Of a stretch of DNA of 49,186 bases, positions 1-15,453 are shown one piece after another. The notes under the pieces were generated by a model. It ran no database searches and was not told the DNA's origin. It saw only the letters and a program-made list of their open reading frames with translations. Within the stretch, counting starts at the first letter, position 1, and each line of letters opens with the position of its first letter. The DNA is taken from positions 1 to 49,186 of the forward strand of contig CAIJXH010000017.1 in NCBI GenBank assembly GCA_903824595.1, given 5' to 3'. The position numbers were made by a program, and so were the translations under genes. This DNA is from an uncultured bacterium (GTDB taxonomy: Bacteria > Patescibacteriota > Minisyncoccia > Phycocordibacterales > UBA2100).

Positions 1-927
1 TATTACGTCACCAAACAGGTGGCTGCTGCAAATGGGCATATGACATATACACCATATGTCCCAGGATCATACGCGTTTACCTTGACGTGTAGTTCTGGGG
101 GTAAAGACGGTTCGCCCACTGCACAGAATCAGGTAACCGTGGATGTCAACAATGGTACGACCCAGCAGGTGTTTCAGACAATCTCCACATCCAAGGCTTC
201 CTACGTTCAAGGTGAACCAATCGCCGTTACGTGGAGAGGATTTGAGAAATCTCACTCGAATGATTCCATTGCTCTTGTGATCGATGGTAAGGCATGGTCT
301 GATTACACTGGTCCTACTGCGAATATGTGGTTCTATACCAAGGATGTGGATAATGGTAGTGGCACCGTCGTAGCTCCATCGCCCGGTACATACGAAGTCG
401 TGTACTTCACCAGAGATGGTTCGTCGGAAGTAGTTCGAAGTTCTCCCATTACGGTTACTGCTGCACCGGTGATTCCTCCGACCATCTCCACCGCCAAAAC
501 CTCTTATGTCCAAGGTGAACCAATCGCCGTTACCATCTCAAATCCCAATCAATCGCTCTACAACGATTGGATCGCGTTCTACGATCCAAACGAAAAAAAC
601 AATGGTGATTACAGTATCAATACGTGGAAAGGCGATTGGGTAACCACCAACGGCACCAAGGTATACAACACGGGATCCGTTGCCTCAAGTGTTACCCTCC
701 AAAGCACGTCTCTCGCTCCTGGTGCCTACCAAATCCGTCTTGTTGATTGCAATTCCAAAGCAACGGTCGCTACGGCATCGGTGACGATTGCGGCGCCTGT
801 TTCTGCAGCCAGTGCGGGGAGTAATCTCGCGGCTGTTGGTGGTTCTGTCGATCTTGCACGTATTCAGTCGACACTCAAATCGTTGCAAGCCGCTCTTGAA
901 GCTATTGCTGCACAAAGAGGACAGTAA
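1..927 (+). CDS. Surface/secreted protein with repeated Ig-like modules, 5'-truncated by window edge
   Basis: Frame open from base 1 (YYVTKQVAAANGH...). Two similar modules: ISTSKASYVQGEPIAVTW and ISTAKTSYVQGEPIAVTI. Confidence 0.7.
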   Translation, partial: YYVTKQVAAANGHMTYTPYVPGSYAFTLTCSSGGKDGSPTAQNQVTVDVNNGTTQQVFQTISTSKASYVQGEPIAVTWRGFEKSHSNDSIALVIDGKAWSDYTGPTANMWFYTKDVDNGSGTVVAPSPGTYEVVYFTRDGSSEVVRSSPITVTAAPVIPPTISTAKTSYVQGEPIAVTISNPNQSLYNDWIAFYDPNEKNNGDYSINTWKGDWVTTNGTKVYNTGSVASSVTLQSTSLAPGAYQIRLVDCNSKATVATASVTIAAPVSAASAGSNLAAVGGSVDLARIQSTLKSLQAALEAIAAQRGQ

Positions 928-950
928 ATGCAGGGTGAGTATGTATGGAG

Positions 951-981
951 AGGCGATGACCGTTGCGTGTCATCGCCTTTC
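951..981. terminator. Putative bidirectional terminator between convergent genes
   Basis: AGGCGATGAC-CGTTGCGT-GTCATCGCCT, 10-bp perfect stem between convergent CDS ends. Confidence 0.6.
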
Positions 982-986
982 TCAAT

Positions 987-1970
987 TTAGATTTTCACAC
1001 ACGCGATGGTGTTGGCGATTGCCATTGCGTTGGCTGGAGCGACGCGAGTTATGTGTGGTGCGGCGTCGACGGCGGCGGTGGCGATGATGGGAAGCCCTGC
1101 TTCAGCGGCTTCAAGGAGAACGTAGGGCGCACCTTCTTTGAGAGAGGGGAGAAGAAATATATCGAACGCCTTCAGGTATGTGGCGGCATCGGGGACGAAA
1201 CCAAGGAAGTGGACGCGATCGGCGACGCCGCACTCCTTTGCTTTGCATTGGAGCGCGACTCTTTCTTCTCCGTCACCCATGATGAAATACTCGACGCACG
1301 TGCCGCGTTCTTTGAGAATCGCGACTGCCTCAATCGCGTAGCGGATGCCTTTGTTGGGCGTGAGTTCGGCGATGGTGATGATGCGTGGCGCCGATGTGTT
1401 GAGAGAAAGTATGAAAGATGATTTTTCTCGTGTGAGGAATGCTGGGGGTTCAATCGCAAGGGGAATGTAGCGCGCCCTTCGTCCGACAAGCCACATCTTC
1501 TTGCCGATCTCCTCGTCCTTTTTTGAAATGACGATCACTTCATGCGCGAGGAGCGCTGTTGCCCAGCTGATCGCGTAGATTGCGCATCGGGTGAATGCGC
1601 TACGCGGCTCTTTGAACGGCCATCCGTGTGCGGTGAACACGATCTTTTTGACGCCACACATACGTCCTGCGAGTGCGCCAAGCGCGGCAGCTTTGGAGCT
1701 GTTGAGATGCAGTACGTCTGGCCTTATCGTACGGATGCAGCGCACTATTTCTAAAAAACTCTTTATGTCGGACAGAGTGGATACATCGCGCACCAGCGAG
1801 GGAATAGCGTACGTTTCGATTCCGTCTTTGGCGAGCATCTCCGAAAGTCGCCCTGCAGTACCGTAAGCAACGACGGGCACCACTCCTTCAGGGGCACGGG
1901 TCGTCATGTCCCATACATAGCGTTGCGCACCGCCCCACGTGGCTTTGGTGATGAGGTATAGAATCTTCAT
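987..1970 (-). CDS. Glycosyltransferase family 4 protein
   Basis: MKILYLITKATWGGAQRYVWDM...; C-terminal FLLPSLKEGAPYVLLEAAEAGLPIIAT typical of GT4. ORF track start is upstream; ATG at 1970 preferred. Confidence 0.85.
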   Translation of the reverse strand: MKILYLITKATWGGAQRYVWDMTTRAPEGVVPVVAYGTAGRLSEMLAKDGIETYAIPSLVRDVSTLSDIKSFLEIVRCIRTIRPDVLHLNSSKAAALGALAGRMCGVKKIVFTAHGWPFKEPRSAFTRCAIYAISWATALLAHEVIVISKKDEEIGKKMWLVGRRARYIPLAIEPPAFLTREKSSFILSLNTSAPRIITIAELTPNKGIRYAIEAVAILKERGTCVEYFIMGDGEERVALQCKAKECGVADRVHFLGFVPDAATYLKAFDIFLLPSLKEGAPYVLLEAAEAGLPIIATAAVDAAPHITRVAPANAMAIANTIACVKI

Positions 1971-2012
1971 GCTTGTGGCTGATCGTGTTTTGTGGCACGA
2001 TTGCCTCATTGT

Positions 2013-3374
2013 ATGACGCTTGTTCCTCAGAGGGAATACCTTGTTCTCTTGATTGGTGATGCGTGTGTGTTTGTGGCGACGCTGTGGATTGCGCTTGCAC
2101 TCCGTGCGTTTACGTTTCCTGCGTGGGATGTGTTCGTGCGGCACCTTGTTCCGTTCTCAATACTGTTCATTGCGTGGGCGCTTGTGTTTTTTGTCGCGGG
2201 ATTGTATGGGAGACACACGCGGTTGTTTCGGAGTGCGCTGCCGTCAAAGATTCTCTATGCGCTTTTGTGCAATATCTTGCTCGCGGCACTCTTTTTCTTT
2301 TTCGTTCCCGTGGGGCTTGCGCCGAAAACAATTCTCGTACTGTATTTGTGCGTCGCGTTTCCGTTGATTTATGTATGGCGAGTTATTGTGTTTACTCGAT
2401 TGCCGCGCTCATTCTCTGGCAAGAAACTTCGCGGAATTCTCATTGCATCTGGTCCCGATGCACGAGAGCTCTCTGAAGAAGTGGCGAGCGACGCACGGTA
2501 TCCATTCGCGTTTGAATATGTGATAGACACGGCGCATACGCCTTCGCATGAAATCATCGAACGTTCGTGTCGTCTTGCGCAGGAAGATGATATGACGTTT
2601 CTTGTGGTTGATTTTTCTGATAAAGCGTTTGTTGCGGCGCAGCCGATTATTTACGATGCGGCATTTCGCAAGCGCAGGTTTGCGATCATTGATATCGTGG
2701 AGTTGTACCAAGAAGTGTTTGAGCGTGTGCCGCTCTCACTCGTCCAATATGAATGGATTCTGTCGCGCGTATCATCTTCTCGCGTGTATGGAGCGCTCAA
2801 GCGCGTTATAGACGTCGTGGGCGCCTTGCTTATTGGCGCGTGTTCTTTGCCCCTGTATCCATTGGTTATGCTTTTCATTTGGGTCGATGATCGCGGCGAG
2901 TATTTCATCGTGCAAAAGCGCGTTGGTCGCTACGAACGTCCGATGAGTATTGTGAAATTCCGTACCATGACAGGTAATGATATGGGCAATTATGGCGCGG
3001 ACGGAAAATCAAAATTGCGTGTGACGCGCGTGGGCAAATGGCTACGCATGCTTCGCATCGACGAATTGCCACAGGTGTGGAACGTGCTCAAGGGAGATTT
3101 GTCGCTGGTCGGACCTCGACCTGAATTGCCGTCGCTCGCGCGCGAATATAGTGCTCATATCCCTTACTACAACGCGCGATATCTCATTACGCCCGGGCTT
3201 ATGGGGTGGGCGCAGCTCAAGCACGACCGAGATCCGCATCACGGCACTGATATTGTTGAAACGAGGAACAAGCTCGCGCACGATCTCTTCTATCTTCGTC
3301 ATCGCTCGCTTCTTCTTGATGTGTATATTATCCTTCAAACAATCCGTGTTGTCCTTTCGGCGCGCGGATCGTGA
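2013..3374 (+). CDS. Polyprenyl-phosphate sugar phosphotransferase (exopolysaccharide initiating transferase)
   Basis: N-terminal TM segments; KRVIDVVGALLIGACSLPLYPLVMLFIWVDD, KFRTMT, RIDELPQVWNVLKGDLSLVGPRPELP. Confidence 0.9.
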   Translation: MTLVPQREYLVLLIGDACVFVATLWIALALRAFTFPAWDVFVRHLVPFSILFIAWALVFFVAGLYGRHTRLFRSALPSKILYALLCNILLAALFFFFVPVGLAPKTILVLYLCVAFPLIYVWRVIVFTRLPRSFSGKKLRGILIASGPDARELSEEVASDARYPFAFEYVIDTAHTPSHEIIERSCRLAQEDDMTFLVVDFSDKAFVAAQPIIYDAAFRKRRFAIIDIVELYQEVFERVPLSLVQYEWILSRVSSSRVYGALKRVIDVVGALLIGACSLPLYPLVMLFIWVDDRGEYFIVQKRVGRYERPMSIVKFRTMTGNDMGNYGADGKSKLRVTRVGKWLRMLRIDELPQVWNVLKGDLSLVGPRPELPSLAREYSAHIPYYNARYLITPGLMGWAQLKHDRDPHHGTDIVETRNKLAHDLFYLRHRSLLLDVYIILQTIRVVLSARGS

Positions 3375-3477
3375 TGTTACGAGCATAGACGACACTTCTT
3401 GAATTCTTCGGTCTCTCGTTCTCCAAAATCCCCACATCCGCCAATGGGGGCGGTAGAAATGCGATATACTAATCAGC

Positions 3478-3639
3478 ATGCAATGGCTTGTCACTGGTCT
3501 GTTTGCGATACCGATCTCCATCGGCGTGTTCGCGGGAGCGATGCCGCTGCTGTATCATGCTGTGCTACAAGGTAGCAACAGTCAGCAAGTCGCGGCGGCT
3601 TCGGAATTCAAAAATCCTGCGGGGGGGGGCGACTCATAG
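3478..3639 (+). CDS. Short signal-anchor ORF, likely the N-terminus of the downstream surface protein, separated by a frameshift at G9
   Basis: MQWLVTGLFAIPISIGVFAGAMPLLYHAVLQGSNSQQVAAASEFKNPAGGGDS*; stop lies just past the G9 tract at 3621-3629. Confidence 0.6.
   Translation: MQWLVTGLFAIPISIGVFAGAMPLLYHAVLQGSNSQQVAAASEFKNPAGGGDS
3621..3629. repeat. Poly(G)9 homopolymer tract at reading-frame junction
   Basis: ctgc ggggggggg cgactcatag. Confidence 0.95.
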
Positions 3640-5657
3640 CATCTTCGTCTCCTGAAAAGAAATCACTCGCATTCACTTCGGCAACGACAACTCCCAAAAG
3701 CGGAGGACAGACCATTATCAACCAGTATCCCGTCATCGAACGCGTGGAACACCTCAACACCATCACCACGCAAAGCGGCGTTACGCCATCCGACCTCAAC
3801 GCGCTTGAGAACAAGATGCGCTCGCTCATCTCTCTCCAATCCTCCCAACAAGGTGCGCAGACCGCCGCCGTCTCTCAAATGGTCTCCCAATCCCAGAGAA
3901 TAGACAACTTGAGCAATACCACTATCCAAAATCCCACAATCACCGGCGGCTCCATCACGGCCGCTTCTATCGCGGGCACCATCGTCAATGCGATCAACAC
4001 CGACGCCGCGACCATCGACAATCTCACGTCCAACACCGTCACCGCCAGCAATGGCACCTTCACCTACGCCACGACCACGAATCTCGTCGCAACGAATGCA
4101 ACGACCACCAACCTCTCTGCGGTATACGCGTCTTCCGTCCTCTCCACAATCGGCACCCTGAATCTCACCAACGCACTCACACCAGGGAACGGCGGCACCG
4201 GCACCTCGACCCCCGCCTCCCTCGGCAACCTCCTCTCCTGGAACGGCACCACCTACCAAGGCGTCGCCACCTCCTCACTCTTCAACACCGCCAACACCAG
4301 CGTCTCCGGCCTCCTCTCTGCCACCGACTGGAACACCTTCAATGGGAAGCAAGCTGCCGGCTCCTACCTCACCGCTCTCACCGGCGATATCACTGCGACC
4401 GGACCTGGATCAGCGGTAGCAACCTTGGCGATGAACGTCTCCCACTGGTGGACTGCTCTGCAAAACTTCGGCAACGCCAGCACCTCCATGCTCACTGCCA
4501 CCAGTACCGTGTGGTTCACGTCGCTCGCCACTCCCACCGGCACCTTTTTGGCGGTAGATACTACAGGGAAGGTGATCGCGACCACCACGCCCGCCAACTA
4601 CTTCACCAATAGCGGCTCCAACACCTACCTCTCTACTGGCATCAATCTCCTCGTCGGCACCACCACGTCGCTCGCTCCCTTAACGATCTTCAAGACAGCC
4701 GCCTCCGCGCAAGAGCGCATCTCGTACGATGCCACCCGCTATGCCGAGCTCTATACCGACGCCTCCGGCGCGCTCAATCTCAGCGCGACCGGTGCCATCC
4801 TCAACATGCTCAACGGCAACATGTATCTCTGCGACGGCGGCGCGTGCCCGACCACGCCCGTGCAGGGCTACCCGACGTTCGCGAGCCAGGGCAATCTCGT
4901 CTTGGGCAATGCGCTCTATACAAATGCAGTAAATCCGGCTACCTGTCCCTCTGGCATGATTCCCGTACCCGCCTCGCCCGCAAATGGTCAGCAGGGATTC
5001 TGCGTGGACAAATACGAAGCGCAATCATCAAGCGGCAATGAGGTATCGGTGCAAGGCGGCTCGCCGTGGGTATCCATCGCGCAGACCAGCGCGAGAGCCG
5101 AATGCAAGCGCGCCGGCAAGCACCTCATCACGGAGAAAGAGTGGCAGGCGATTGCAAATGATGTCGAGAATGTCGGGTTCAACTGGAACGGCGGTGTCGT
5201 CGGCACCAACCAAATGAGCGACGGTCATTCCGACAACAGCCCCTCATCCGCGCTCGCGACCGCCGCCGACTCCTCGCCCTGCTCTGACACCGGCCAGACC
5301 TGCGACCTTAGTACATGGAACAGCCAACGTCGCGTGTACAAATTATCAAATGGGCAATACATCTGGGACTTCGGCGGCAATGTCTGGGAATGGGTGGATC
5401 AGACGGTTACCAATGACTATCCAATCGTCAACAGCGCGGCGGCTGGATGGCAGGCATGCTCCACAAGCGGCGACGGCGTCTGCGGCAACACGCGCACCAC
5501 CAACGACCAATGGTACCGAGGCGGTTTTGCCACCATTGCGGGCTTCATCCGCGGCGGCAATTGGAACGATGGCGCGATCGATGGTGCGTTCGCGCTGGGT
5601 CTGAACAATTCGCCGTCCGCTGTGGGCACGTCCCTTGGGTTTCGGTGCTCTCGTTGA
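3630..5657 (+). CDS. Large surface protein with C-terminal FGE-sulfatase/C-type-lectin-like domain (putative DGR target)
   Basis: Frame open from the G-tract but no ATG/GTG/TTG until GTG 3744. C-terminal GFCVDKYEAQ...GGNVWEWVDQ...FIRGGNWNDGAIDGAFALGLNNSPSAVGTSLGFRCSR. Confidence 0.75.
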   Translation, partial: RLIASSSPEKKSLAFTSATTTPKSGGQTIINQYPVIERVEHLNTITTQSGVTPSDLNALENKMRSLISLQSSQQGAQTAAVSQMVSQSQRIDNLSNTTIQNPTITGGSITAASIAGTIVNAINTDAATIDNLTSNTVTASNGTFTYATTTNLVATNATTTNLSAVYASSVLSTIGTLNLTNALTPGNGGTGTSTPASLGNLLSWNGTTYQGVATSSLFNTANTSVSGLLSATDWNTFNGKQAAGSYLTALTGDITATGPGSAVATLAMNVSHWWTALQNFGNASTSMLTATSTVWFTSLATPTGTFLAVDTTGKVIATTTPANYFTNSGSNTYLSTGINLLVGTTTSLAPLTIFKTAASAQERISYDATRYAELYTDASGALNLSATGAILNMLNGNMYLCDGGACPTTPVQGYPTFASQGNLVLGNALYTNAVNPATCPSGMIPVPASPANGQQGFCVDKYEAQSSSGNEVSVQGGSPWVSIAQTSARAECKRAGKHLITEKEWQAIANDVENVGFNWNGGVVGTNQMSDGHSDNSPSSALATAADSSPCSDTGQTCDLSTWNSQRRVYKLSNGQYIWDFGGNVWEWVDQTVTNDYPIVNSAAAGWQACSTSGDGVCGNTRTTNDQWYRGGFATIAGFIRGGNWNDGAIDGAFALGLNNSPSAVGTSLGFRCSR
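5551..5657 (+). other. Putative DGR variable region (VR)
   Basis: RGGNWN..GA..GAFAL.LNNSPS....LGFRC layout; candidate variable codons (AAT AAC GAT ATC GAT GGT TTC GGT AAC AAT TCC GCT GGC TCC) all end in T/C, as expected from AAY template codons. Confidence 0.7.
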
Positions 5658-5730
5658 AGGGGTTACTCTACAATCTTGAATCTATCAATCTATAATCTTG
5701 CATTTTGTATCTTCTTCAATCTCTTCCGCT

Positions 5731-5916
5731 ATGTTGCACGACCTCCAAATCTTCCAGAAATCGTATACATTCCTCTTCTGGATAAAACAGGTTACGCAAA
5801 AATTCGCCAAGGCGCACAAGTACGCGCTCGCCACGCGGATTCTTTCTGTCTTCGGCGATCTATGGAAAGTCGGCTCGGGCTTCCGCCCGGTAGCATTGCG
5901 TGAATATTTGACGTGA
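5731..5916 (+). pseudogene. Truncated Avd-like / four-helix-bundle (S23-like) protein
   Basis: MLHDLQIFQKSYTFLFWIKQVTQKFAKAHKYALATRI resembles the N-terminus of Avd-like proteins, then non-family sequence and stop at 61 aa. Confidence 0.6.
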
Positions 5917-5930
5917 TATAATCGGATGGT

Positions 5931-6296
5931 ATGAAAGAGAAAAGCAAACAGAAAACGGAGGTGCAGGAGTTGTTTGAGTTTATCCGCGAGCACATGCCGC
6001 TGAAAAGCGAGGTGGCGATGAAAGACGATCTTGCACGATTTGCTACGAAAGATGATCTTGTCGCCATAAAAAGCGATATTGTTGCCATGAAAAGCGATAT
6101 TGTTGCCATGAAAAGCGATCTCACTGAACAAATAGAGGACGTCAAACGATTTGTTACTGACAAACTCGAGCAGAACAAAGAAGAGATCATTGACCGTCTC
6201 ACACCGACCGAAAAAGCGGTAGACAAGGATGTCGTCATGGTCTTGGATCACGAACGCCGCATCCGCATTATCGAAAAACAGTATGCGCGGGCCTAA
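5931..6296 (+). CDS. Coiled-coil hypothetical protein
   Basis: KDDL...KSDIVAMKSDIVAMKSDL heptad-type sequence. Confidence 0.7.
   Translation: MKEKSKQKTEVQELFEFIREHMPLKSEVAMKDDLARFATKDDLVAIKSDIVAMKSDIVAMKSDLTEQIEDVKRFVTDKLEQNKEEIIDRLTPTEKAVDKDVVMVLDHERRIRIIEKQYARA
6063..6125 (+). repeat. Tandem 21-bp repeat, three units, encoding heptads
   Basis: gccataaaaagcgatattgtt / gccatgaaaagcgatattgtt / gccatgaaaagcgatctcact. Confidence 0.9.
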
Positions 6297-6308
6297 TCAT
6301 ATTGAACT

Positions 6309-7115
6309 ATGAAGAGCGAACTTATTAAACGAGCCGTTCACTTCCTCGCCTACAACAACGCGACGGTCGTCGCGCTGGGATTGGTGCTCATCGGCGGGTC
6401 GGCGTTTGCCGCGACGACTGCGTTTACGCCGGAGAACATTCCGCCGGTACCGTCCGTTTTCTCTGCGATTGCTTCCGCGTCGGAGCCGATGGACGCGAGC
6501 ATCCTACTTTCCGCCGACCTTGCCGCGTTTGATTTCGGGACGAAGATCACCGGCGTTTCGGAAACCGACGCGCAGTATGTCGTGAATTATTCTTTGCAAA
6601 CGCTCGCACCAGAAGATGGTGCATGGCGAGGAAGTGAGCGCGATGGCAGTTTCTCCGTCGGGAAAGACGCACTCGGCGATGGTGGGCTTGCTGGATACGC
6701 GCGAGAGAAACTACTGGACATCGAAAACGGCGAGCGTGCATACCTCGCGAGAGCGAAAGAAGCGGAGCAGAAGATCGCCGACGAGCGATCATCTCGTCCG
6801 GCAAATGCTTTCGCTGGTCTCGTCGGACTTTCGCTTGATCAGATTCCCGAGCCGGTCGTCGTGAAGCCCATGCCGGAGCCGGTGCCCGATGTCGCGCTTC
6901 CAATCTCCGCGCCTTCGGTTGTCATGCCAGAGTCGACTTCCGAGTCCGTTTCTGTCGAAACGACGCCCTCCGCGCTTTCGTCTACAGAAGGCGCCGCGAC
7001 GACCACACAGGATATTATTTCTGTCGCGACAACCTCGCCTTCCGATTCAGAAACTGGTTCGTCAGATGCTACGAGTTCGACTCCGCCCGAAGGCGCGACA
7101 TCCGTCACGCTGTAA
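6309..7115 (+). CDS. Hypothetical membrane-anchored/secreted protein with Pro/Ser/Thr-rich tail
   Basis: N-terminal hydrophobic segment VVALGLVLIGGSAFAATTAF, low-complexity C-terminus. Confidence 0.65.
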   Translation: MKSELIKRAVHFLAYNNATVVALGLVLIGGSAFAATTAFTPENIPPVPSVFSAIASASEPMDASILLSADLAAFDFGTKITGVSETDAQYVVNYSLQTLAPEDGAWRGSERDGSFSVGKDALGDGGLAGYAREKLLDIENGERAYLARAKEAEQKIADERSSRPANAFAGLVGLSLDQIPEPVVVKPMPEPVPDVALPISAPSVVMPESTSESVSVETTPSALSSTEGAATTTQDIISVATTSPSDSETGSSDATSSTPPEGATSVTL

Positions 7116-7165
7116 AAGAAAAACAACGCCTCGCACGTTTTCACTCCACGGGGTAGTATAGGAAG

Positions 7166-8074
7166 ATGAAGAAAGTCGTAGTAACCGGTGGGGCGGGATT
7201 TGTCGGGAGTAACTTGGTGCGCGAGCTTCTTGCGCAGGGATGGGATGTGCGCAGCGTCGACAACTATTCGGCGGGGAAAATTCCGAGTCGTTTTTTCGAC
7301 GGCGCAACCTACATCGAGGCCGATATACGCGCGACAAAAGACATTGAAAAGGTGTGTATCGGAGCCGACGTGGTGTTTCATACGGCCGCCAAGCCGCGCG
7401 TTCAGTTCTCGATAGACGAGCCGCTCGACACGACCGACAACAACATCACGGGTACCGTGTCGGTGTTGAAGGCTGCAACGGATGCGGGTGTGTCTCGCGT
7501 CGTGTATTCAAGTTCGGGTTCGGCATACGGCGCACAGGAAACGTTGCCGCTCACCGAAGACATGCCTGCCGCGCCGGTACATCCGTATGGTGTGCAAAAG
7601 TACGCCGCGGAACTGTTTGTGAGCATGTGGCCGTCTATCTACAAGCTCGAAACGGTCTCGCTTCGCTATTTCAATATCTATGGTCCTGGCCTTGATCCAA
7701 GCGGTGCATACGCGCTCGCCATCGGACGATTCATCACTGCGCGCAAAGAAGGAAAACCAATCACTATCTATGGCGACGGTACGATCACGCGCGATTTTAC
7801 TCATGTGCGTGACGTGGTGCGTGCCAATATCTTGGCAGCGGAGAGTGGGAAAGTAGGAAAGGGTGAAGTGATCAATATTGGTGCCGGGCGCAACGTTACG
7901 ATACAGAAACTTGCCGAAATGTTTGGAGGCGAGATCGTCTATGGGGCGCCGCGCATTGAAGCACATGATTCACTTGCTAATAATCAAAAGGCTAAAGAGC
8001 TCCTCGGATGGGAGCCGAAAGAAAATCTGGAAGATGGTATCGCAGAATTAAAACAATTATTTGGCATCGCATGA
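7166..8074 (+). CDS. NAD-dependent epimerase/dehydratase (UDP-glucose 4-epimerase-like)
   Basis: VTGGAGFVGSNLVREL, YGVQKYAAE, RYFNIYGPG. Confidence 0.9.
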   Translation: MKKVVVTGGAGFVGSNLVRELLAQGWDVRSVDNYSAGKIPSRFFDGATYIEADIRATKDIEKVCIGADVVFHTAAKPRVQFSIDEPLDTTDNNITGTVSVLKAATDAGVSRVVYSSSGSAYGAQETLPLTEDMPAAPVHPYGVQKYAAELFVSMWPSIYKLETVSLRYFNIYGPGLDPSGAYALAIGRFITARKEGKPITIYGDGTITRDFTHVRDVVRANILAAESGKVGKGEVINIGAGRNVTIQKLAEMFGGEIVYGAPRIEAHDSLANNQKAKELLGWEPKENLEDGIAELKQLFGIA

Positions 8075-8874
8075 TACTCGACGGCAAAGCCATAGCTGAA
8101 GACATGTATGTGGATCTCGCTCCGTGCTATGCGATGCTCGGTACATGTGTGCGGTTGGGGATTGTCGTTGTGGGGAATGATCCCGTGATTGAGTCTTTTG
8201 TGCGGATAAAATCGCGGAGCGCGGCGCGTCTCGGAGTTGATGTGGTACGCGTGAATTTGTCTGACAAGGTGCAGACGACGGAAGTGATTGCGGAAATTGA
8301 AACGTTGTCGCGTGTGGCGAACGGTATCATTGTGCAATTGCCGCTTCCTGTACCTATTGATACCAACGCGGTGCTTTCAGCGATTCCGCCAGAGAAGGAT
8401 GTAGATGCGATCAATCCACGTATAGCTGATGAAGATAGACGGGTACGTGCGCCTGTCGCGCTCGCCGTTGTCGAGTTGCTTGCACGGGGAAGTGTCGATC
8501 CGCGCGACAAACGAGTCATCGTTGCTGGTTCGGGGCGCCTCGTGGGCGCGCCTGCCGCGTCCTTGCTCGCGAGTCTCGGCGCCCGCGTATCGTTTTTCAC
8601 GCGTACTGAAGGATCGATCGATGATCTCAAGAATGCCGATATTATTGTCCTTGGCATGGGTGATCCGGCTTTTATAAAACCAGAACATCTCAAGGAGGGT
8701 GTTGCGCTTATAGATGCGGCAACGAGCGAACAGGCGGGCAAGGTTGTTGGTGACGCCGATCCTGCGTGTGCTTCAAAAACATCTCTTTTTACGCCCGTTC
8801 CCGGCGGCGTGGGACCGGTGGCGGTGGCGATGATATTCAAGAATTTGCTTGTGTTGGCGCAATGCGCATCATAA
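8071..8874 (+). CDS. folD: Bifunctional methylenetetrahydrofolate dehydrogenase/cyclohydrolase
   Basis: GIIVQLPLP, PPEKDVDAINP, VIVAGSGRLVGAP, PVPGGVGPVAVAMIFKN; ATGA overlap with upstream stop. Confidence 0.9.
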   Translation: MILDGKAIAEDMYVDLAPCYAMLGTCVRLGIVVVGNDPVIESFVRIKSRSAARLGVDVVRVNLSDKVQTTEVIAEIETLSRVANGIIVQLPLPVPIDTNAVLSAIPPEKDVDAINPRIADEDRRVRAPVALAVVELLARGSVDPRDKRVIVAGSGRLVGAPAASLLASLGARVSFFTRTEGSIDDLKNADIIVLGMGDPAFIKPEHLKEGVALIDAATSEQAGKVVGDADPACASKTSLFTPVPGGVGPVAVAMIFKNLLVLAQCAS

Positions 8875-8937
8875 CCTTCAAAAGGTGAACATGTGTCATG
8901 TGTTGCAAAAATCTCCATTTTAGGTACTCTTCTGCCC

Positions 8938-10254
8938 ATGGCTCAAAAGAGATTTGCTGCGATTTTTGTCCTGCTTGTTGGAGTGGGTGTGGGGTGGTTT
9001 GTATATAGCTCGCAAATTCACGCGACGCGCCCTTTCAAGCTCGGACTCGATCTCTCTGGGGGCACGCAGCTTGTGTATCGTGCCAAAGTGGATGCGATCA
9101 AGTCGTCGGACATTGAGGGTTCGATGGCATCTTTGCGCGATACGATCGAACGCCGAGTCAATCTTTTCGGAGTATCGGAACCAATCGTGCAGACGGAGCA
9201 GGCGAGCGCGCTCGGTGGCAATGAACATCGTCTCATCGTGGAGCTCCCCGGCGTGACAGACACGGAGAAAGCGATCGAGCTGATCGGTCAGACGCCTGTT
9301 CTTGAATTTCGTATGCTCAAGCCGAATGCTTCTGTGCCGAGCGATTTTTCCGCATCGAGCATCAGTGCTGCGTTTGAAGCCCCTGCGATCACAGGCAAGA
9401 ATCTGAAGAGTGCCGAGCTTCAATTTCAGGGCGGTATGGGACGTCTCACGCAGCCAGTGGTCGTACTGCATTTTGATTCCTCGGGTTCTTCCGCATTTGC
9501 GCTACTTACCAAGCAGAATGTGGGTCGCGTATTTGGTATTTTTCTCGATGGGCAACCGATCTCTACGCCCGTTATTCGAGAAGAGATTCCCGATGGGACT
9601 GCGGTTATTTCTGGTGGTTTTTCTGTCGAAGATGCAAAGACTCTTTCTCGCAATCTCAATTACGGCGCATTGCCTGTGCCGATCGAGCTTATTTCTACGC
9701 AGACGGTCTCTGGAACATTGGGAGATAAAGCGGTGCGCGACGGTGTGATGGCGGGCTTGTGGGGCGTGGGTGTCGTGGGGTTTTTCATGATGCTCTGGTA
9801 TCGCGTACCAGGAGTGCTCGCGGTGGTCGCTCTTGCGATGTATGTCGTCATGGTTCTTGCGTTGTTCAAACTTATCCCCGTCACGCTCACCGCCGCTGGT
9901 ATTGCCGCTTTTATTCTCTCTGTTGGTATGGCAGTGGATGCAAACATTCTTATTTTCGAGCGCGTGAAAGAAGAACGTCGCTCGGGTAAGGATATGGAGG
10001 TGGCTATTCAAGATGGTTTTGCGCGTGCATGGCCATCTATCCGCGACAGCAACATCTCTTCGCTCATCACGGCAACGATCCTCTTCTGGTTTGGTTCGTC
10101 GCTTATCAAAGGATTCGCGCTCGTCTTCGGGCTCGGTGTGATTATTTCGATGATCACGGCGATTTCGATTTCACGCACGTTTCTCTTGGCGCTCGGCGTC
10201 GGAGGAAAAAATGCGTTTACGCGATTTTTGCTCGGATCGGGCATCTCACACTAA
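8938..10254 (+). CDS. secD: Protein translocase subunit SecD
   Basis: FKLGLDLSGGTQLVYRA; LNYGALPVPIEL; GMAVDANILIFERVKEE. Confidence 0.95.
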   Translation: MAQKRFAAIFVLLVGVGVGWFVYSSQIHATRPFKLGLDLSGGTQLVYRAKVDAIKSSDIEGSMASLRDTIERRVNLFGVSEPIVQTEQASALGGNEHRLIVELPGVTDTEKAIELIGQTPVLEFRMLKPNASVPSDFSASSISAAFEAPAITGKNLKSAELQFQGGMGRLTQPVVVLHFDSSGSSAFALLTKQNVGRVFGIFLDGQPISTPVIREEIPDGTAVISGGFSVEDAKTLSRNLNYGALPVPIELISTQTVSGTLGDKAVRDGVMAGLWGVGVVGFFMMLWYRVPGVLAVVALAMYVVMVLALFKLIPVTLTAAGIAAFILSVGMAVDANILIFERVKEERRSGKDMEVAIQDGFARAWPSIRDSNISSLITATILFWFGSSLIKGFALVFGLGVIISMITAISISRTFLLALGVGGKNAFTRFLLGSGISH

Positions 10255-10260
10255 TCTCAT

Positions 10261-11172
10261 ATGATCATCGTCATCTACAGAAAATTGTTCTTCGCGATCA
10301 CAGCACTGCTTGTACTCGCTTCTGTCGCGTCGATTGCGGTGTTTGGCTTGCGTCTCGGCACCGATTTTACGGGCGGCACATTGATACAGGCGACGTATGC
10401 GGGAGGACGTCCGACACCCGAAGCGCTCCAGCGGTCGCTCGACACGGCTGGCTTCAATGGTTATTCGCTTCGCGAAGCAGGATCGAATGATTACGTGGTC
10501 CGCGCCGCCAACCTCACGGAGATCGAACGCACTGATTTGCCTCAAATTCTCTCGGTCGGCGGTATGTATCCTGCGACGATCAGCCAGCTTACCGAGGTAG
10601 GTCCTACCATCGGTGCCGAACTTCGTAGTAAAGCGCTTATCGCGCTCACGCTCGTGCTGCTCGCGATTCTTTTGTTTATCGCGTTTGCGTTTAGAAAAGT
10701 GTCGCAGCCTGTTTCATCGTGGACATACGGACTGATCGCGCTCATTACGCTCGTGCACGACGTGATCGTGCCCGTTGGTTTCTATGCCATGCTCGGACAC
10801 TTTTTCGGCGCACAGGTGGATTCGCTCTTTGTGACTGCGGTTCTCACCGTGCTCGGCTTTTCCATTCACGATACAATCGTCGTCTTCGATCGAGTACGTG
10901 AGAATTTGCGTGTGAATAAAGACAGGGGAAGGCGCGAGGATTTTGCGGAGACCGCCGGTCGTTCGCTCAATCAGACGTTTGTGCGCTCGATCAACACGTC
11001 GCTCACGGTTGTTTTCACACTCTTCGTTTTATATCACATGGGTCCGGCATCCACGCGTGACTTTTCTCTTACGCTTCTCGTGGGTATTATTGCTGGTACG
11101 TATTCATCGATCTTTCTCGCGACGCCGCTTTTGGTGAGCGCGGAGCGATATCTCGCGCGGAAGCGCGCATGA
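10261..11172 (+). CDS. secF: Protein translocase subunit SecF
   Basis: LRLGTDFTGGTLIQATY; GFSIHDTIVVFDRVREN. Confidence 0.95.
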   Translation: MIIVIYRKLFFAITALLVLASVASIAVFGLRLGTDFTGGTLIQATYAGGRPTPEALQRSLDTAGFNGYSLREAGSNDYVVRAANLTEIERTDLPQILSVGGMYPATISQLTEVGPTIGAELRSKALIALTLVLLAILLFIAFAFRKVSQPVSSWTYGLIALITLVHDVIVPVGFYAMLGHFFGAQVDSLFVTAVLTVLGFSIHDTIVVFDRVRENLRVNKDRGRREDFAETAGRSLNQTFVRSINTSLTVVFTLFVLYHMGPASTRDFSLTLLVGIIAGTYSSIFLATPLLVSAERYLARKRA

Positions 11173-11897
11173 TCCGCACGCTTGGCATAGTCGGCTACGG
11201 TGCGTTTGGCACACTGCTTTCTACGCTCGCCAAGCGTTTTGTGCCGAACATTGATGTGCGCGTGTATTCCTTGCGCAAAGAGCCTGATGGCGTCACGTTC
11301 TTTTCGCTGGCTGATACGGCGTCGTCTGATGTGGTGGTGCTTGCGGTGCCTATTCATGCGTTTGAGAACAAGCTCAAAGAAATACTGCCGCTCATGCGAA
11401 CGGACGGTATTATCGTCGACGTGGCGACGGTCAAAGCGCATACGGTCGAGGTGTTGCGGCGGCTGGCGGGCAACCGCCGCTGGATTGCAACGCATCCAAT
11501 GTGGGGTCCTGAGAGCTACAAAAAGAAACACGGTGACGTGACGGGGTTTCGCGTTGTTATAACCGAGCATACACTCGAAATACAAGACGTTGACGCGCTT
11601 TCTCGTTTCCTTTCCCTATGCGGATTCACGGTTGTTTCGATGAACGCCGATCAGCACGACATTCATCTTGCCGAGACGCTCTTTCTGACGCATTTCATCG
11701 GACAAATTATCGCGCGTTCTGGATTTGATCGTACGCCAATCGACACTGCTTCTTTTGGGTATATCATGGACGCGGTCGAGAGTGTGAAAAATGATGAAGC
11801 GTTGTTCCGCGACGTGTTTCGATACAATCCGTATTGCAAAGAGGTGCTGGAGCGGTTTGGGGAGGGGGAGGAAGCGGTGCGGAAGCTGCTGGGGTAG
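11169..11897 (+). CDS. Prephenate dehydrogenase-like (TyrA family)
   Basis: LGIVGYGAFGTLL Rossmann motif; HPMWGPES motif. Confidence 0.75.
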   Translation: MIRTLGIVGYGAFGTLLSTLAKRFVPNIDVRVYSLRKEPDGVTFFSLADTASSDVVVLAVPIHAFENKLKEILPLMRTDGIIVDVATVKAHTVEVLRRLAGNRRWIATHPMWGPESYKKKHGDVTGFRVVITEHTLEIQDVDALSRFLSLCGFTVVSMNADQHDIHLAETLFLTHFIGQIIARSGFDRTPIDTASFGYIMDAVESVKNDEALFRDVFRYNPYCKEVLERFGEGEEAVRKLLG

Positions 11898-11911
11898 CGT
11901 ACAATGTGCCT

Positions 11912-12586
11912 ATGAAGCTGAAAAAGAAGCACTCGATTGATGAACTGGTGATCTACCAGGCAAAAGACGGAGCGATTGAGCTGCGGGGCGATGTGTCGCG
12001 TGATACGATATGGGCTTCCCTTGATCAGATCGCTCAAATCTTTGGTCGTGACAGGTCGGTGATATCTCGCCACTTGAAGAACATATATAATGAAGGAGAA
12101 TTGAAAGCGACACTAACTGTTGCAAAAAATGCAACAGTTCAAATCGAAGGCAGTCGTCAAGTCGTTCGTACTATTGAATATTATAATCTCGACGCCATTC
12201 TTTCCGTCGGGTATCGGGTGAATTCCAATACCGCGACACAATTCCGTCAGTGGGCGACGCGTATCCTCCGCGAGCACATCACGTGCGGCTACACCATCAA
12301 CCGAAAACGCATTGGCAGTAATTACGATGCGTTCATGAAAGCCGTCGCCGACGTACAGACGCTGTTGCCGGAACATATCACGCTCGACCCGAAAGCGGTA
12401 CTCGATCTCTGGAATCCTAGAGGCGACACCTCTAGGATGGATTACAGATTGCGCACATATACATCGACTTTCTTGTATGACGTGAGAATAATGAGTTTGT
12501 CTCGGTGTTCACGGACGAGTGCCTGGATTTTCGGTCTTGCGGTGAAATGGCGACGGATGATGTCGAAGAAGAACAGAATCTCTTGA
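11912..12586 (+). pseudogene. RhuM-family protein, truncated; reading past ~12413 is antisense to the next gene
   Basis: RDRSVISRHLKNIYNEGEL, YYNLDAILSVGYRVNSNTATQFRQWATRILREHITCGYTINRKRI; family similarity ends at palindrome 12414-12438. Confidence 0.75.
12414..12438. repeat. Palindromic REP-like element, copy 1
   Basis: ATCCTAGAGG-CGACA-CCTCTAGGAT, perfect 10-bp arms. Confidence 0.85.
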
Positions 12587-12945
12587 CGCAACGTGAGTTC
12601 TTTGTGTCTATCGGCATATCCGATGCGCGTTGTGTGATTGATGAGTCGCCGCCAGAGGGGAATATCGAGAAAAATAATGGTATCGGCTCGTGCGGCGATT
12701 TCCGGCTGAATGCGCGAGTAGAATCCATCCGAGACCCACGATTCTTTCCCGATTGCTTCGAGTGTTTTCTCTCGGATATATGCTCGCACGTTCTCAATGT
12801 TGGGTGTGGTGCGGCTGTTTCTTTGCCCGCCCGCTTCAAACCAAAATCGATCGAGGTGAATGTGCGGTATGTCGAGCTTTTTACTGATTCTCTCCGCCAG
12901 TGTTGTCTTGCCGCTCCCTGGCATGCCGATGATGCTGATGCGCAT
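12442..12945 (-). CDS. P-loop nucleotide kinase-like protein (adenylate kinase/FlaR-type)
   Basis: MRISIIGMPGSGKTTLAERISKKLDIPHIHLDRFWF. Confidence 0.85.
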   Translation of the reverse strand: MRISIIGMPGSGKTTLAERISKKLDIPHIHLDRFWFEAGGQRNSRTTPNIENVRAYIREKTLEAIGKESWVSDGFYSRIQPEIAARADTIIFLDIPLWRRLINHTTRIGYADRHKELTLRQEILFFFDIIRRHFTARPKIQALVREHRDKLIILTSYKKVDVYVRNL

Positions 12946-13030
12946 GACGACATAATACTTGGGATTGAGAAAGAAATCGATATAGCCATGCGGCATTCGC
13001 TCATTACCCTGCCATGATATACTGCATACA

Positions 13031-14173
13031 ATGGTTTCTTTTCTCGATTCTATAACGAATGTGTTTGCGGGCTCATCGCATGAAAGCGTTGTGGGAATAG
13101 ACATAGGGGCCGCATCGGTGAAAATGGTGCAGTGCCGTGCTTCTCGAGGAAGTGCGATTCTTGAAACATATGGTGAAATAGCGCTTGGTCCGTACGCGCG
13201 CCAACCTATCGGAAAAGCAGTGCGATTGCCGCCCAACGATATGACTGAAGCGCTGCGTACGCTTATGAAAGAAGCGAATGTAACCGCGAAACATGCCAAT
13301 ATATCAATACCGTTTGCCTCAAGCCTCATATCGGTTATCGATTTTCCTGTAGTCGATTCGGCTACGTTGAAAACAATGCTTCCTATTGAGGCGCGCAAAT
13401 ATATTCCCGTTCCTATTTCCGAAGTTACGCTCGATTGGATGGTCGTACCTGAGGACGAGCAAGATGGAAGTGCGTTTGACAGAATTACGAAGGTTGCGAC
13501 GCAAAAAAATGTCAAGAAACAGCGCATTGTGTTGGTGGCGGTGCAAAACAGTACGCTGTCTGATTATCGAACCATCACCACGGCAGCAGGGCTTGACAGT
13601 GATTTTTATGAAATTGAGATATTTAGCGCTGTTCGTTCATCCAATAAACATTCGATCGCGCCAGCGCTCTTCGCCGATATAGGGGCGTCTACCACCAAGC
13701 TCTATGTGGTTGAGCGCGGTATTGTGCGTCTCGCGCATTTGGTGACGGTCGGAGGGCAGCAGATCACTGATACGCTTGCTCGATCCCTTGGGTGGGAATT
13801 TGAGAAAGCAGAGAGAATCAAGCGCGAATGCGGGCTGCATGGTTCCTCTGCGTTCTCTGTCGATGAGAATGAGAAAATAAAGATGGCATTGTTATCAACA
13901 CTCGGTCGTGTATTTTCTGAAGTGAATCGCGTATTATTGAGCTACGGGCAGCGATACAACAAGAATGTATCGCGCGTCGTCCTTACAGGCGGCGGCGCGT
14001 CGCTTCCCGGTATCGCAGATCAGGCAAAAGCCTCGTTGAATGCCGAAGTAGAGATTGCCGATCCTTTTTCACGAGTAGAGGCGCCTGCGTTTATGAGCGG
14101 TGTATTGCATGATATTGGTCCTTGTTTTGCGGTAGCTATGGGGCTTGTACTGCACGCGATGAAAGAATCATAG
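13031..14173 (+). CDS. pilM: Type IV pilus assembly protein PilM
   Basis: VVGIDIGAASVKMVQ, actin-like fold motifs, VVLTGGGASLPGI; position at start of pil cluster. Confidence 0.9.
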   Translation: MVSFLDSITNVFAGSSHESVVGIDIGAASVKMVQCRASRGSAILETYGEIALGPYARQPIGKAVRLPPNDMTEALRTLMKEANVTAKHANISIPFASSLISVIDFPVVDSATLKTMLPIEARKYIPVPISEVTLDWMVVPEDEQDGSAFDRITKVATQKNVKKQRIVLVAVQNSTLSDYRTITTAAGLDSDFYEIEIFSAVRSSNKHSIAPALFADIGASTTKLYVVERGIVRLAHLVTVGGQQITDTLARSLGWEFEKAERIKRECGLHGSSAFSVDENEKIKMALLSTLGRVFSEVNRVLLSYGQRYNKNVSRVVLTGGGASLPGIADQAKASLNAEVEIADPFSRVEAPAFMSGVLHDIGPCFAVAMGLVLHAMKES

Positions 14174-14180
14174 AAAATTT

Positions 14181-14876
14181 ATGCCAACCAACCCTATTCC
14201 AAAACCTTCGTTCATACCGCATGAGGCGCCTCAAATGCGTCCAACTGCCGATTCGGCAAGCATGGCAGATTTCTTCATGCTCATCTCGATCGTGCTCATG
14301 GTCGCTTCACTCGGATTGGGTGCGGGTGTATTTCTCTATCAGCAGTATGTGGATACCAGTAACACATCGAAACTCAAGCAATTAGGGACTGTAAAAGACG
14401 CGCTTGAACCTTCGTTTGTAGAAAAATGCACCAAGCTCGATGATCGTATGCAAGTGGCGGGAAAGCTTCTATCTCGGCACGAAGCTTTTTCATTGGTGTT
14501 TAGCGCGCTTCAACAAACGACCATCAAGACCGTCTCGTTCAAATCTCTCATGATAACAAGCGATGATGGCGGAGCAATTTCATTCAAGATGGACGGAGTG
14601 ACCAATAGCATCAACTCGATTGCGCTTCAAGCCGATTTGTTTGGCAAGACTGGTTTCATGAAAGACATTATTTTTTCAGGCATCACACGATCTTCCGATG
14701 GAGTGCATTTTTCGGTGACAGGTGAGCTCAGTCCTGCCGATATACGGTATGCACAGGTGGTGAGCGCCGCGGTGCCTGCATCAGATACGTCGAGCGGGCC
14801 GCCGCTTTCATCGCCGAGCGTGTCTTCTGGGGGTGAAGGTGGAGATTCTTCGGCAAAGTCAGCACAAACAAACTAA
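14181..14876 (+). CDS. PilN-like inner membrane pilus assembly protein
   Basis: Single TM near N-terminus; follows pilM and precedes PilO-like gene. Confidence 0.6.
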   Translation: MPTNPIPKPSFIPHEAPQMRPTADSASMADFFMLISIVLMVASLGLGAGVFLYQQYVDTSNTSKLKQLGTVKDALEPSFVEKCTKLDDRMQVAGKLLSRHEAFSLVFSALQQTTIKTVSFKSLMITSDDGGAISFKMDGVTNSINSIALQADLFGKTGFMKDIIFSGITRSSDGVHFSVTGELSPADIRYAQVVSAAVPASDTSSGPPLSSPSVSSGGEGGDSSAKSAQTN

Positions 14877-14880
14877 TTAT

Positions 14881-15453
14881 ATGGGAAAAATAATCTTTTC
14901 ATTGTGCAGTCTTGGGGTCGCGGGGGCAACGCTCTTTCTGTATACCCAGCCAACCTACGATAACGTAAAAGTCCTTGAGAATCAGAGTTCTGAATATTCA
15001 CAGGCTCTTGCTAAGGCAAGAGAATTGCAAGAATTGAAAAAAAGCCTCCTCGATCGCTACAATTCATTTGAGCCGGGAGATCTCGATCGATTGAATAGGT
15101 CGTTGCCTGATCATGTCGACAACGTGCGTCTCGTTCTCGATCTTGACAATCTTGCTTCAAAACACCGCATGTCGCTTGAAAATGTTGCGATTGGACAAGC
15201 GGCAAAAAATTCCAGCCAGAGCGCATCGGTTGGCGCCGCGCAGCCTATTGGTAAAAATGATCAGAAATACGATTCGCTCACGCTTAGTTTTACTATGCAT
15301 GGCACGTACGAGGATTTCACCGCATTTCTCAAGGATATTGAATCAAGTCTCCGTATTGTAGACGTGGTGTCTTTGGGTATTGTCCCTGATTCATCGCAAG
15401 CGGTTGGTCAGTATCAATACGATATGATGATACGCACCTATTGGCTCAAATAA
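14881..15453 (+). CDS. PilO-like pilus assembly protein
   Basis: TM, coiled coil, LPDHVDNVRLVLDLDNLASKHRMSLENV, GTYEDFTAFLKDIESSLRIVDV. Confidence 0.75.
   Translation: MGKIIFSLCSLGVAGATLFLYTQPTYDNVKVLENQSSEYSQALAKARELQELKKSLLDRYNSFEPGDLDRLNRSLPDHVDNVRLVLDLDNLASKHRMSLENVAIGQAAKNSSQSASVGAAQPIGKNDQKYDSLTLSFTMHGTYEDFTAFLKDIESSLRIVDVVSLGIVPDSSQAVGQYQYDMMIRTYWLK

What the first reader, a model, noticed from the sequence alone, without database searches (positions are those of the whole stretch)
5731..5916. Avd-like fragment directly downstream of the putative DGR target, but no RT or clear template repeat in the window
MLHDLQIFQKSYTFLFWIKQVTQKFAKAHKYALATRI matches the N-terminal style of Avd-like four-helix-bundle proteins. 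After about 36 aa it breaks into unrelated sequence (SVFGDLWKVGSGFRPVALREYLT*). No ORF in the track shows an RT catalytic motif. The cassette may be an orphan target served in trans, or a decayed DGR. The GSGFRPV-encoding DNA (ggctcgggcttccgcccggtag) weakly resembles a DGR repeat 3' end and could mark a deletion scar.
Basis: partly seen in the sequence, partly recalled or inferred. Interest (0 to 1): 0.75.

Follow-up and report, generated by a model that had tools for sequence, protein, structure and literature searches.

The report
Remains of a lost mutation cassette
A small-genome CPR bacterium still carries the surface protein that a self-mutating gene cassette (a diversity-generating retroelement, DGR) once rewrote, but of the cassette's own genes only the first third of its helper gene avd is left; decayed cassettes of this kind are already known, so this is an ordinary though well-documented case.

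Summary
ORF 5731-5916 starts with a genuine Avd N-terminus (NCBIfam NF033474, E 5e-6, profile positions 1-40 of 104) and then breaks off; no frame holds the missing two thirds. The decisive comparison is a syntenic intact relative, L064 (Ca. Nomurabacteria MAG Ike-100m-41): target domain 78% identical, order target-VR / avd / TR / RT / membrane gene on one strand, 17 of 20 TR-VR differences at TR adenines. The window has the same order with avd beyond about codon 40, TR and RT missing. L064's Avd is the closest to the fragment among those collected. No RT and no template repeat were found in the window's genome (97.6% complete); the same RT query finds RTs in genus relatives. So this is a deletion-decayed DGR with a retained target, and nothing found in the genome could serve it in trans. 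The 'GSGFRPV' stretch resembles the TR 3' end (shuffle p about 0.002 when aimed there, not significant over the whole cassette): a TR scar is possible but unproven. A second relative, G325, also lacks the cassette. Decayed DGRs are documented elsewhere.

The parts
3744..5657 (+). Former DGR target (variable protein): stalk-like repeats plus a C-terminal FGE-sulfatase/C-type-lectin-like domain ending GFRCSR. The gene probably starts at 3478, out of frame across a G9 tract at 3621-3629.
   Evidence: Pfam FGE-sulfatase E 6.6e-5; 78% identical to the target of an intact DGR, L064; ORFs
5538..5655 (+). Variable repeat (VR) region at the 3' end of the target
   Evidence: Aligns without gaps over 118 nt to L064 TR and VR; 11 of 27 differences to L064 TR lie at TR adenines, 11 are third-codon-position changes at other bases
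5731..5868 (+). 5' remnant of avd: about 40 codons clearly alike, 46 in the BLAST alignment
   Evidence: NF033474 E 5e-6; L064 Avd is the best match among the Avds collected, 24.1 bits against 17.3 for the next; blastp 33% over 46 aa
5869..5916 (+). Non-Avd tail of the ORF and probable deletion junction; 5878-5892 (GGCTTCCGCCCGGTA) resembles the TR 3' end with 5 nt missing
   Evidence: Local alignment and shuffles: suggestive only
5931..6296 (+). Small coiled-coil ORF in the place where RT lies in the intact relative; G325 also has a coiled-coil ORF in this place, homology between the two not shown
   Evidence: blastp E 1.4, not significant
6309..7115 (+). Downstream membrane/surface-associated gene (MEM), the synteny anchor
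   Evidence: 51% over 195 aa to L064 8686-9639, E 2.5e-57; 31% to G325, E 3.7e-26; in 28 of 397 genomes of the order

Best explanation
The window holds a DGR that has been inactivated by deletion. Ancestrally the locus ran target with VR, then avd, TR, RT and the membrane gene, as in L064. Error-prone reverse transcription of the TR RNA would have written adenine-directed changes into the VR (established DGR mechanism). In this genome one or more deletions removed avd from about codon 40 onward, nearly all or all of TR, and the whole RT. What is left is an in-frame but presumably non-functional 61-aa ORF whose last 15 or more residues are read from junction sequence. The target has been kept, and its variable domain is now frozen and changes only by ordinary substitution. 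Shown: the Avd fragment, the absence of TR and RT from the assembled genome, and the synteny with an intact relative. Inferred: the order and number of deletions, loss of activity, and whether 5878-5892 is the leftover TR 3' end.
For: Avd profile match limited to positions 1-40. No remaining Avd in any frame. Intact syntenic cassette in L064 with VR 6661-6778, avd 6876-7214, TR 7265-7382 and RT 7573-8676, then the same downstream gene. The fragment is closest to L064's Avd among those collected. No RT in the genome by PF00078 or by L064 RT, while the latter finds RTs at E 1e-65 or better in three genomes of the genus. No second copy of the VR 3' end in the genome. Distant homologous targets across the class have avd downstream in 8 of 17 fetched loci, 7 of them with RT and 6 with a detected TR/VR pair.
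Against: The genome is a draft (22 contigs, 97.6% complete), so an RT or TR on unassembled DNA cannot be excluded. The 61-aa ORF is still open, so a function of a short Avd-like peptide cannot be excluded. The fragment is only 33% identical to L064 Avd while the targets are 78% identical, so avd has diverged much faster, or was replaced before it decayed.
Confidence: 0.88

Rival explanations
1. Orphan (remote) target: the VR is still diversified in trans by an RT and TR elsewhere in the genome, and the avd stub is incidental.
For: Remote targets exist in other DGR systems (PMC7517822). The VR region still looks DGR-like in sequence.
Against: No RT by two queries and no second copy of the VR 3' end in a 97.6%-complete genome. 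16 of 27 differences between the VR and the related TR are not at TR adenines, against 3 of 20 in L064's own VR, which suggests ordinary drift, although the true TR of this genome is unknown.
Confidence: 0.05
2. The 61-aa ORF is a small functional protein: a truncated Avd or four-helix-bundle (S23-like) protein with a new C-terminus.
For: The frame is open for 61 codons. Avd-like matches are common in this genus: 41 of 52 genomes match the Avd profile, many with no RT seen close by.
Against: Only about 40 residues match, less than half of the four-helix bundle. The nearest related Avds are full length (112 aa in L064). DNA 5580-5930 finds no relative in the 52 genomes searched in the genus.
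Confidence: 0.04
3. Assembly artefact: an intact cassette was collapsed or mis-joined in this draft assembly.
For: Draft genome. VR and TR are near-repeats that can mislead assemblers. A G9 tract breaks the target frame nearby.
Against: A VR/TR collapse would remove all of avd rather than cut it at codon 40. No RT-bearing contig exists elsewhere in the assembly. G325 independently lacks the cassette at the equivalent locus.
Confidence: 0.03

Closest known systems
Intact DGR of Ca. Nomurabacteria Ike-100m-41 (L064, contig CALREW010000002.1)
   Same: Target domain 78% identical, avd at the same place and strand, same downstream gene
   Different: L064 has a full avd, a TR and an RT (the RT is interrupted by a G-rich stretch and a 10-N assembly gap near its 3' end); the window has only the avd 5' part
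Treponema denticola isolates with targets but no TR or RT (PMC4891356)
   Same: Targets kept after loss of TR and RT; the authors call some of these targets remnants of core DGR components
   Different: Spirochaete, multiple targets per genome
Degraded DGR of Anabaena sp. 90 and the all3226 paralogue (PMC7517822)
   Same: Partly degraded cassette or leftover TR-VR homology
   Different: In Anabaena sp. 90 only the RT remains, the reverse of this case
Other DGRs of the same genus (L043-L062)
   Same: Same genus, RT and Avd present, adenine-biased TR/VR pairs
   Different: In the loci examined avd is antisense to RT, a different architecture from the window and L064

Membership tests
Diversity-generating retroelement (functional DGR) | DGR-type reverse transcriptase | tested here: not met
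   No match to PF00078 or to L064 RT in the genome; positive hits in G003, G011, G016 and G348
Diversity-generating retroelement (functional DGR) | Template repeat near-identical to VR with adenine-specific differences | tested here: not met
   No adenine-biased self-repeat in window 1-15000; the VR 3' end has no second copy in the genome within 1 mismatch, and the 2-3 mismatch hits are no more frequent than the control
Diversity-generating retroelement (functional DGR) | Target with C-terminal C-type-lectin/FGE-like domain and a VR at its 3' end | tested here: met
   FGE-sulfatase domain; colinear with L064 VR and TR
Diversity-generating retroelement (functional DGR) | Accessory avd gene, complete | tested here: not met
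   Only positions 1-40 of 104 present, no remainder in any frame
Avd (NF033474) | Score above the curated cut-off of 80 bits over the full length | tested here: not met
   26.8 bits, E 5e-6, N-terminal part only: homologous fragment, not a full member
23S rRNA intervening-sequence protein (S23, PF05635) | Score above the gathering cut-off of 33.8 bits | tested here: not met
   16.3 bits, E 0.012; the Avd-specific model scores higher
Decayed DGR | Recognisable remnant in the syntenic position of an intact relative | tested here: met
   L064 comparison

The most novel reading that the evidence does not exclude
After losing the retroelement, this lineage changed how it varies the same surface protein: a G9 tract (3621-3629) between the membrane/signal segment (ORF 3478-3639) and the target frame could switch the protein on and off by slippage, replacing sequence diversification with phase variation.
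Probability: 0.07. Interest if true: 0.55.

Novelty: new member of a known kind. Interest (0 to 1): 0.27.

Why it matters
It gives a clean before-and-after pair: an intact cassette in L064, and the same locus in the window with the target kept and the mutator lost. It suggests that CPR bacteria can drop the DGR machinery and keep a frozen variant. Homologous targets in the class occur both with and without a downstream cassette, so the rate of loss could be measured. It is not a new mechanism.

Tried and rejected
Orphan target in trans: no RT or TR found. RT remnants in 5600-6400: tblastn with L064 RT and its C-terminus gave only chance-level hits, best E 0.16. Avd C-terminal remnants in the tail: one weak out-of-frame alignment (FLSSAIYGKSA, E 2.9) that a family profile did not support. 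DNA of 5580-5930 in the 52 genomes searched in the genus: only the window itself. Target relatives in viral contigs: none. Inverted repeats around the window cassette like those in L064: none convincing. An Avd-like start (MFEQLPI) 81 nt after the target stop in G325: the position fits, but the 60-nt stub alone is not significant (275 of 500 shuffles); the intergenic stretch as a whole aligns to L064's spacer (0 of 200 shuffles).

Full report
Observation. The ORF lies exactly where described (ATG 5731, stop 5914-5916, 61 aa). Its residues 5-44 match the NCBIfam model for the DGR accessory protein Avd (NF033474), E 5e-6, profile positions 1-40 of 104. The two Pfam relatives (bAvd, 23S_rRNA_IVP) match only weakly, E 0.012-0.014. 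A profile built here from 52 Avd rows of related genomes (some duplicates) hits the same stretch in the same frame (18 bits) and finds nothing for the other two thirds in any of the six frames of 5650-6350.

Setting. The window belongs to a 771-kb, 22-contig genome, 97.6% complete. Upstream lies the putative target. Its C-terminal part matches FGE-sulfatase (E 6.6e-5), a domain with the C-type lectin-like fold common in DGR targets (general knowledge), and it ends in GFRCSR.

Intact relative. A scan of 84,980 genomes with the 259-aa C-terminal domain found one clear relative, L064 (Candidatus Nomurabacteria isolate Ike-100m-41), 78% identical over the whole query; in the genome search it appears as G348, of another family in the same order. 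It has target with VR 6661-6778, avd 6876-7214 (112 aa), TR 7265-7382 and RT 7573-8676, then a gene homologous to window 6309-7115 (51% over 195 aa, E 2.5e-57). TR and VR differ at 20 positions, 17 of them adenines in TR, the signature of a DGR. The RT of L064 is itself interrupted near its 3' end by a G-rich stretch and a 10-N assembly gap, so its present activity is uncertain.

What is missing here. In the window the same order appears without avd beyond codon 40-46, without TR and without RT. A 121-aa coiled-coil ORF (5931-6296) stands where RT would be. L064's Avd is the best match to the fragment among the Avds collected from the genus and order (24.1 bits; next 17.3), and at DNA level the two avd starts align over about 90 nt with 0 of 200 shuffles reaching the score. 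This links the fragment to the intact cassette independently of position.

Machinery elsewhere. PF00078 finds no RT in the genome. L064 RT finds none either at E up to 10, while it finds RTs at E 1e-65 or better in G003, G011 and G016 of the same genus. The 3' end of the VR has no second copy within 1 mismatch, and the 2-3 mismatch hits are no more frequent than in the reversed control. So no resident machinery to serve the target in trans was found, within the limits of a draft genome.

The tail and the proposed scar. Aligned to the whole L064 cassette, the best match of the tail is the TR 3' end: GGCTTCCGC-(5 nt missing)-CCGGTA. Against the TR 3' end alone, 0.2% of shuffles reach this score, and 24 of 3170 other 62-nt windows of this contig do. 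Against the whole 1.9-kb cassette, 36% of shuffles do. I rate the scar as possible, about even odds.

Drift in the VR. Against L064's TR, 16 of 27 differences in the window's VR lie at bases other than TR adenines, 11 of them at third codon positions. In L064's own VR it is 3 of 20. This fits a target no longer rewritten, but the comparison is confounded because the window's own TR is gone.

Frequency of the state. G325, of a third family, has a target 64% identical, no RT and no avd or TR/VR pair in its locus, the same downstream gene (E 3.7e-26), and an Avd-like start (MFEQLPI) 81 nt after the target stop that is not significant by itself. Of 17 class-level target loci, eight have avd downstream of the target, seven of these with an RT and six with a detected TR/VR pair; nine have no avd within the stretch fetched, one of them (L165) because the contig ends. 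Two loci without avd (L179, L180) have the target followed by the MEM gene without a cassette, while L176 has target-avd-TR-RT-MEM. DGRs with the avd gene antisense to RT occur in the window's own genus, so the window's cassette was of the other type.

Literature. Targets kept without TR or RT are reported for eight Treponema denticola isolates (PMC4891356). A degraded cassette is reported for Anabaena sp. [quoted passage not shown] A clade of cellular DGRs restricted to Patescibacteria/CPR is reported in PMC8144416. The finding is thus a further member of a known kind.

Verdict. Decayed DGR with a retained target, confidence 0.88. Interest is low to moderate. The one point that could raise it is the G9 tract that separates the signal segment from the target frame.

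Noticed in passing
window 3478-3640 and 3576-5657: A G9 tract at 3621-3629 lies between a membrane/signal-like ORF and the target frame, which has no start codon before GTG 3744; one extra G would join them. Phase variation, decay or assembly/sequencing error.
   Followed up: partly
L064 3223-3566 and 11214-11557: A 344-bp inverted repeat, 100% identical, flanks the whole target-DGR-membrane-gene cassette; possible invertible or mobile unit, or an assembly effect.
   Followed up: no
L064 8446-8535: The RT of the intact relative is interrupted by a G-rich stretch and a 10-N assembly gap near its 3' end.
   Followed up: no
L067 (G325), about 1502-1800 on the reverse complement: A second relative with the target kept and no avd, TR or RT; an ATG with MFEQLPI follows 81 nt after the target stop. 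Probably an independently decayed copy.
   Followed up: partly
L044 and L047: DGRs of the window's genus have avd antisense to RT, lying between TR and RT.
   Followed up: partly
window 6309-7115: A membrane gene found in 28 of 397 genomes of the order, in some cases beside stalk-like surface proteins or DGR parts.
   Followed up: partly
window 6040-6119: A 21-nt tandem repeat inside the small coiled-coil ORF 5931-6296.
   Followed up: no
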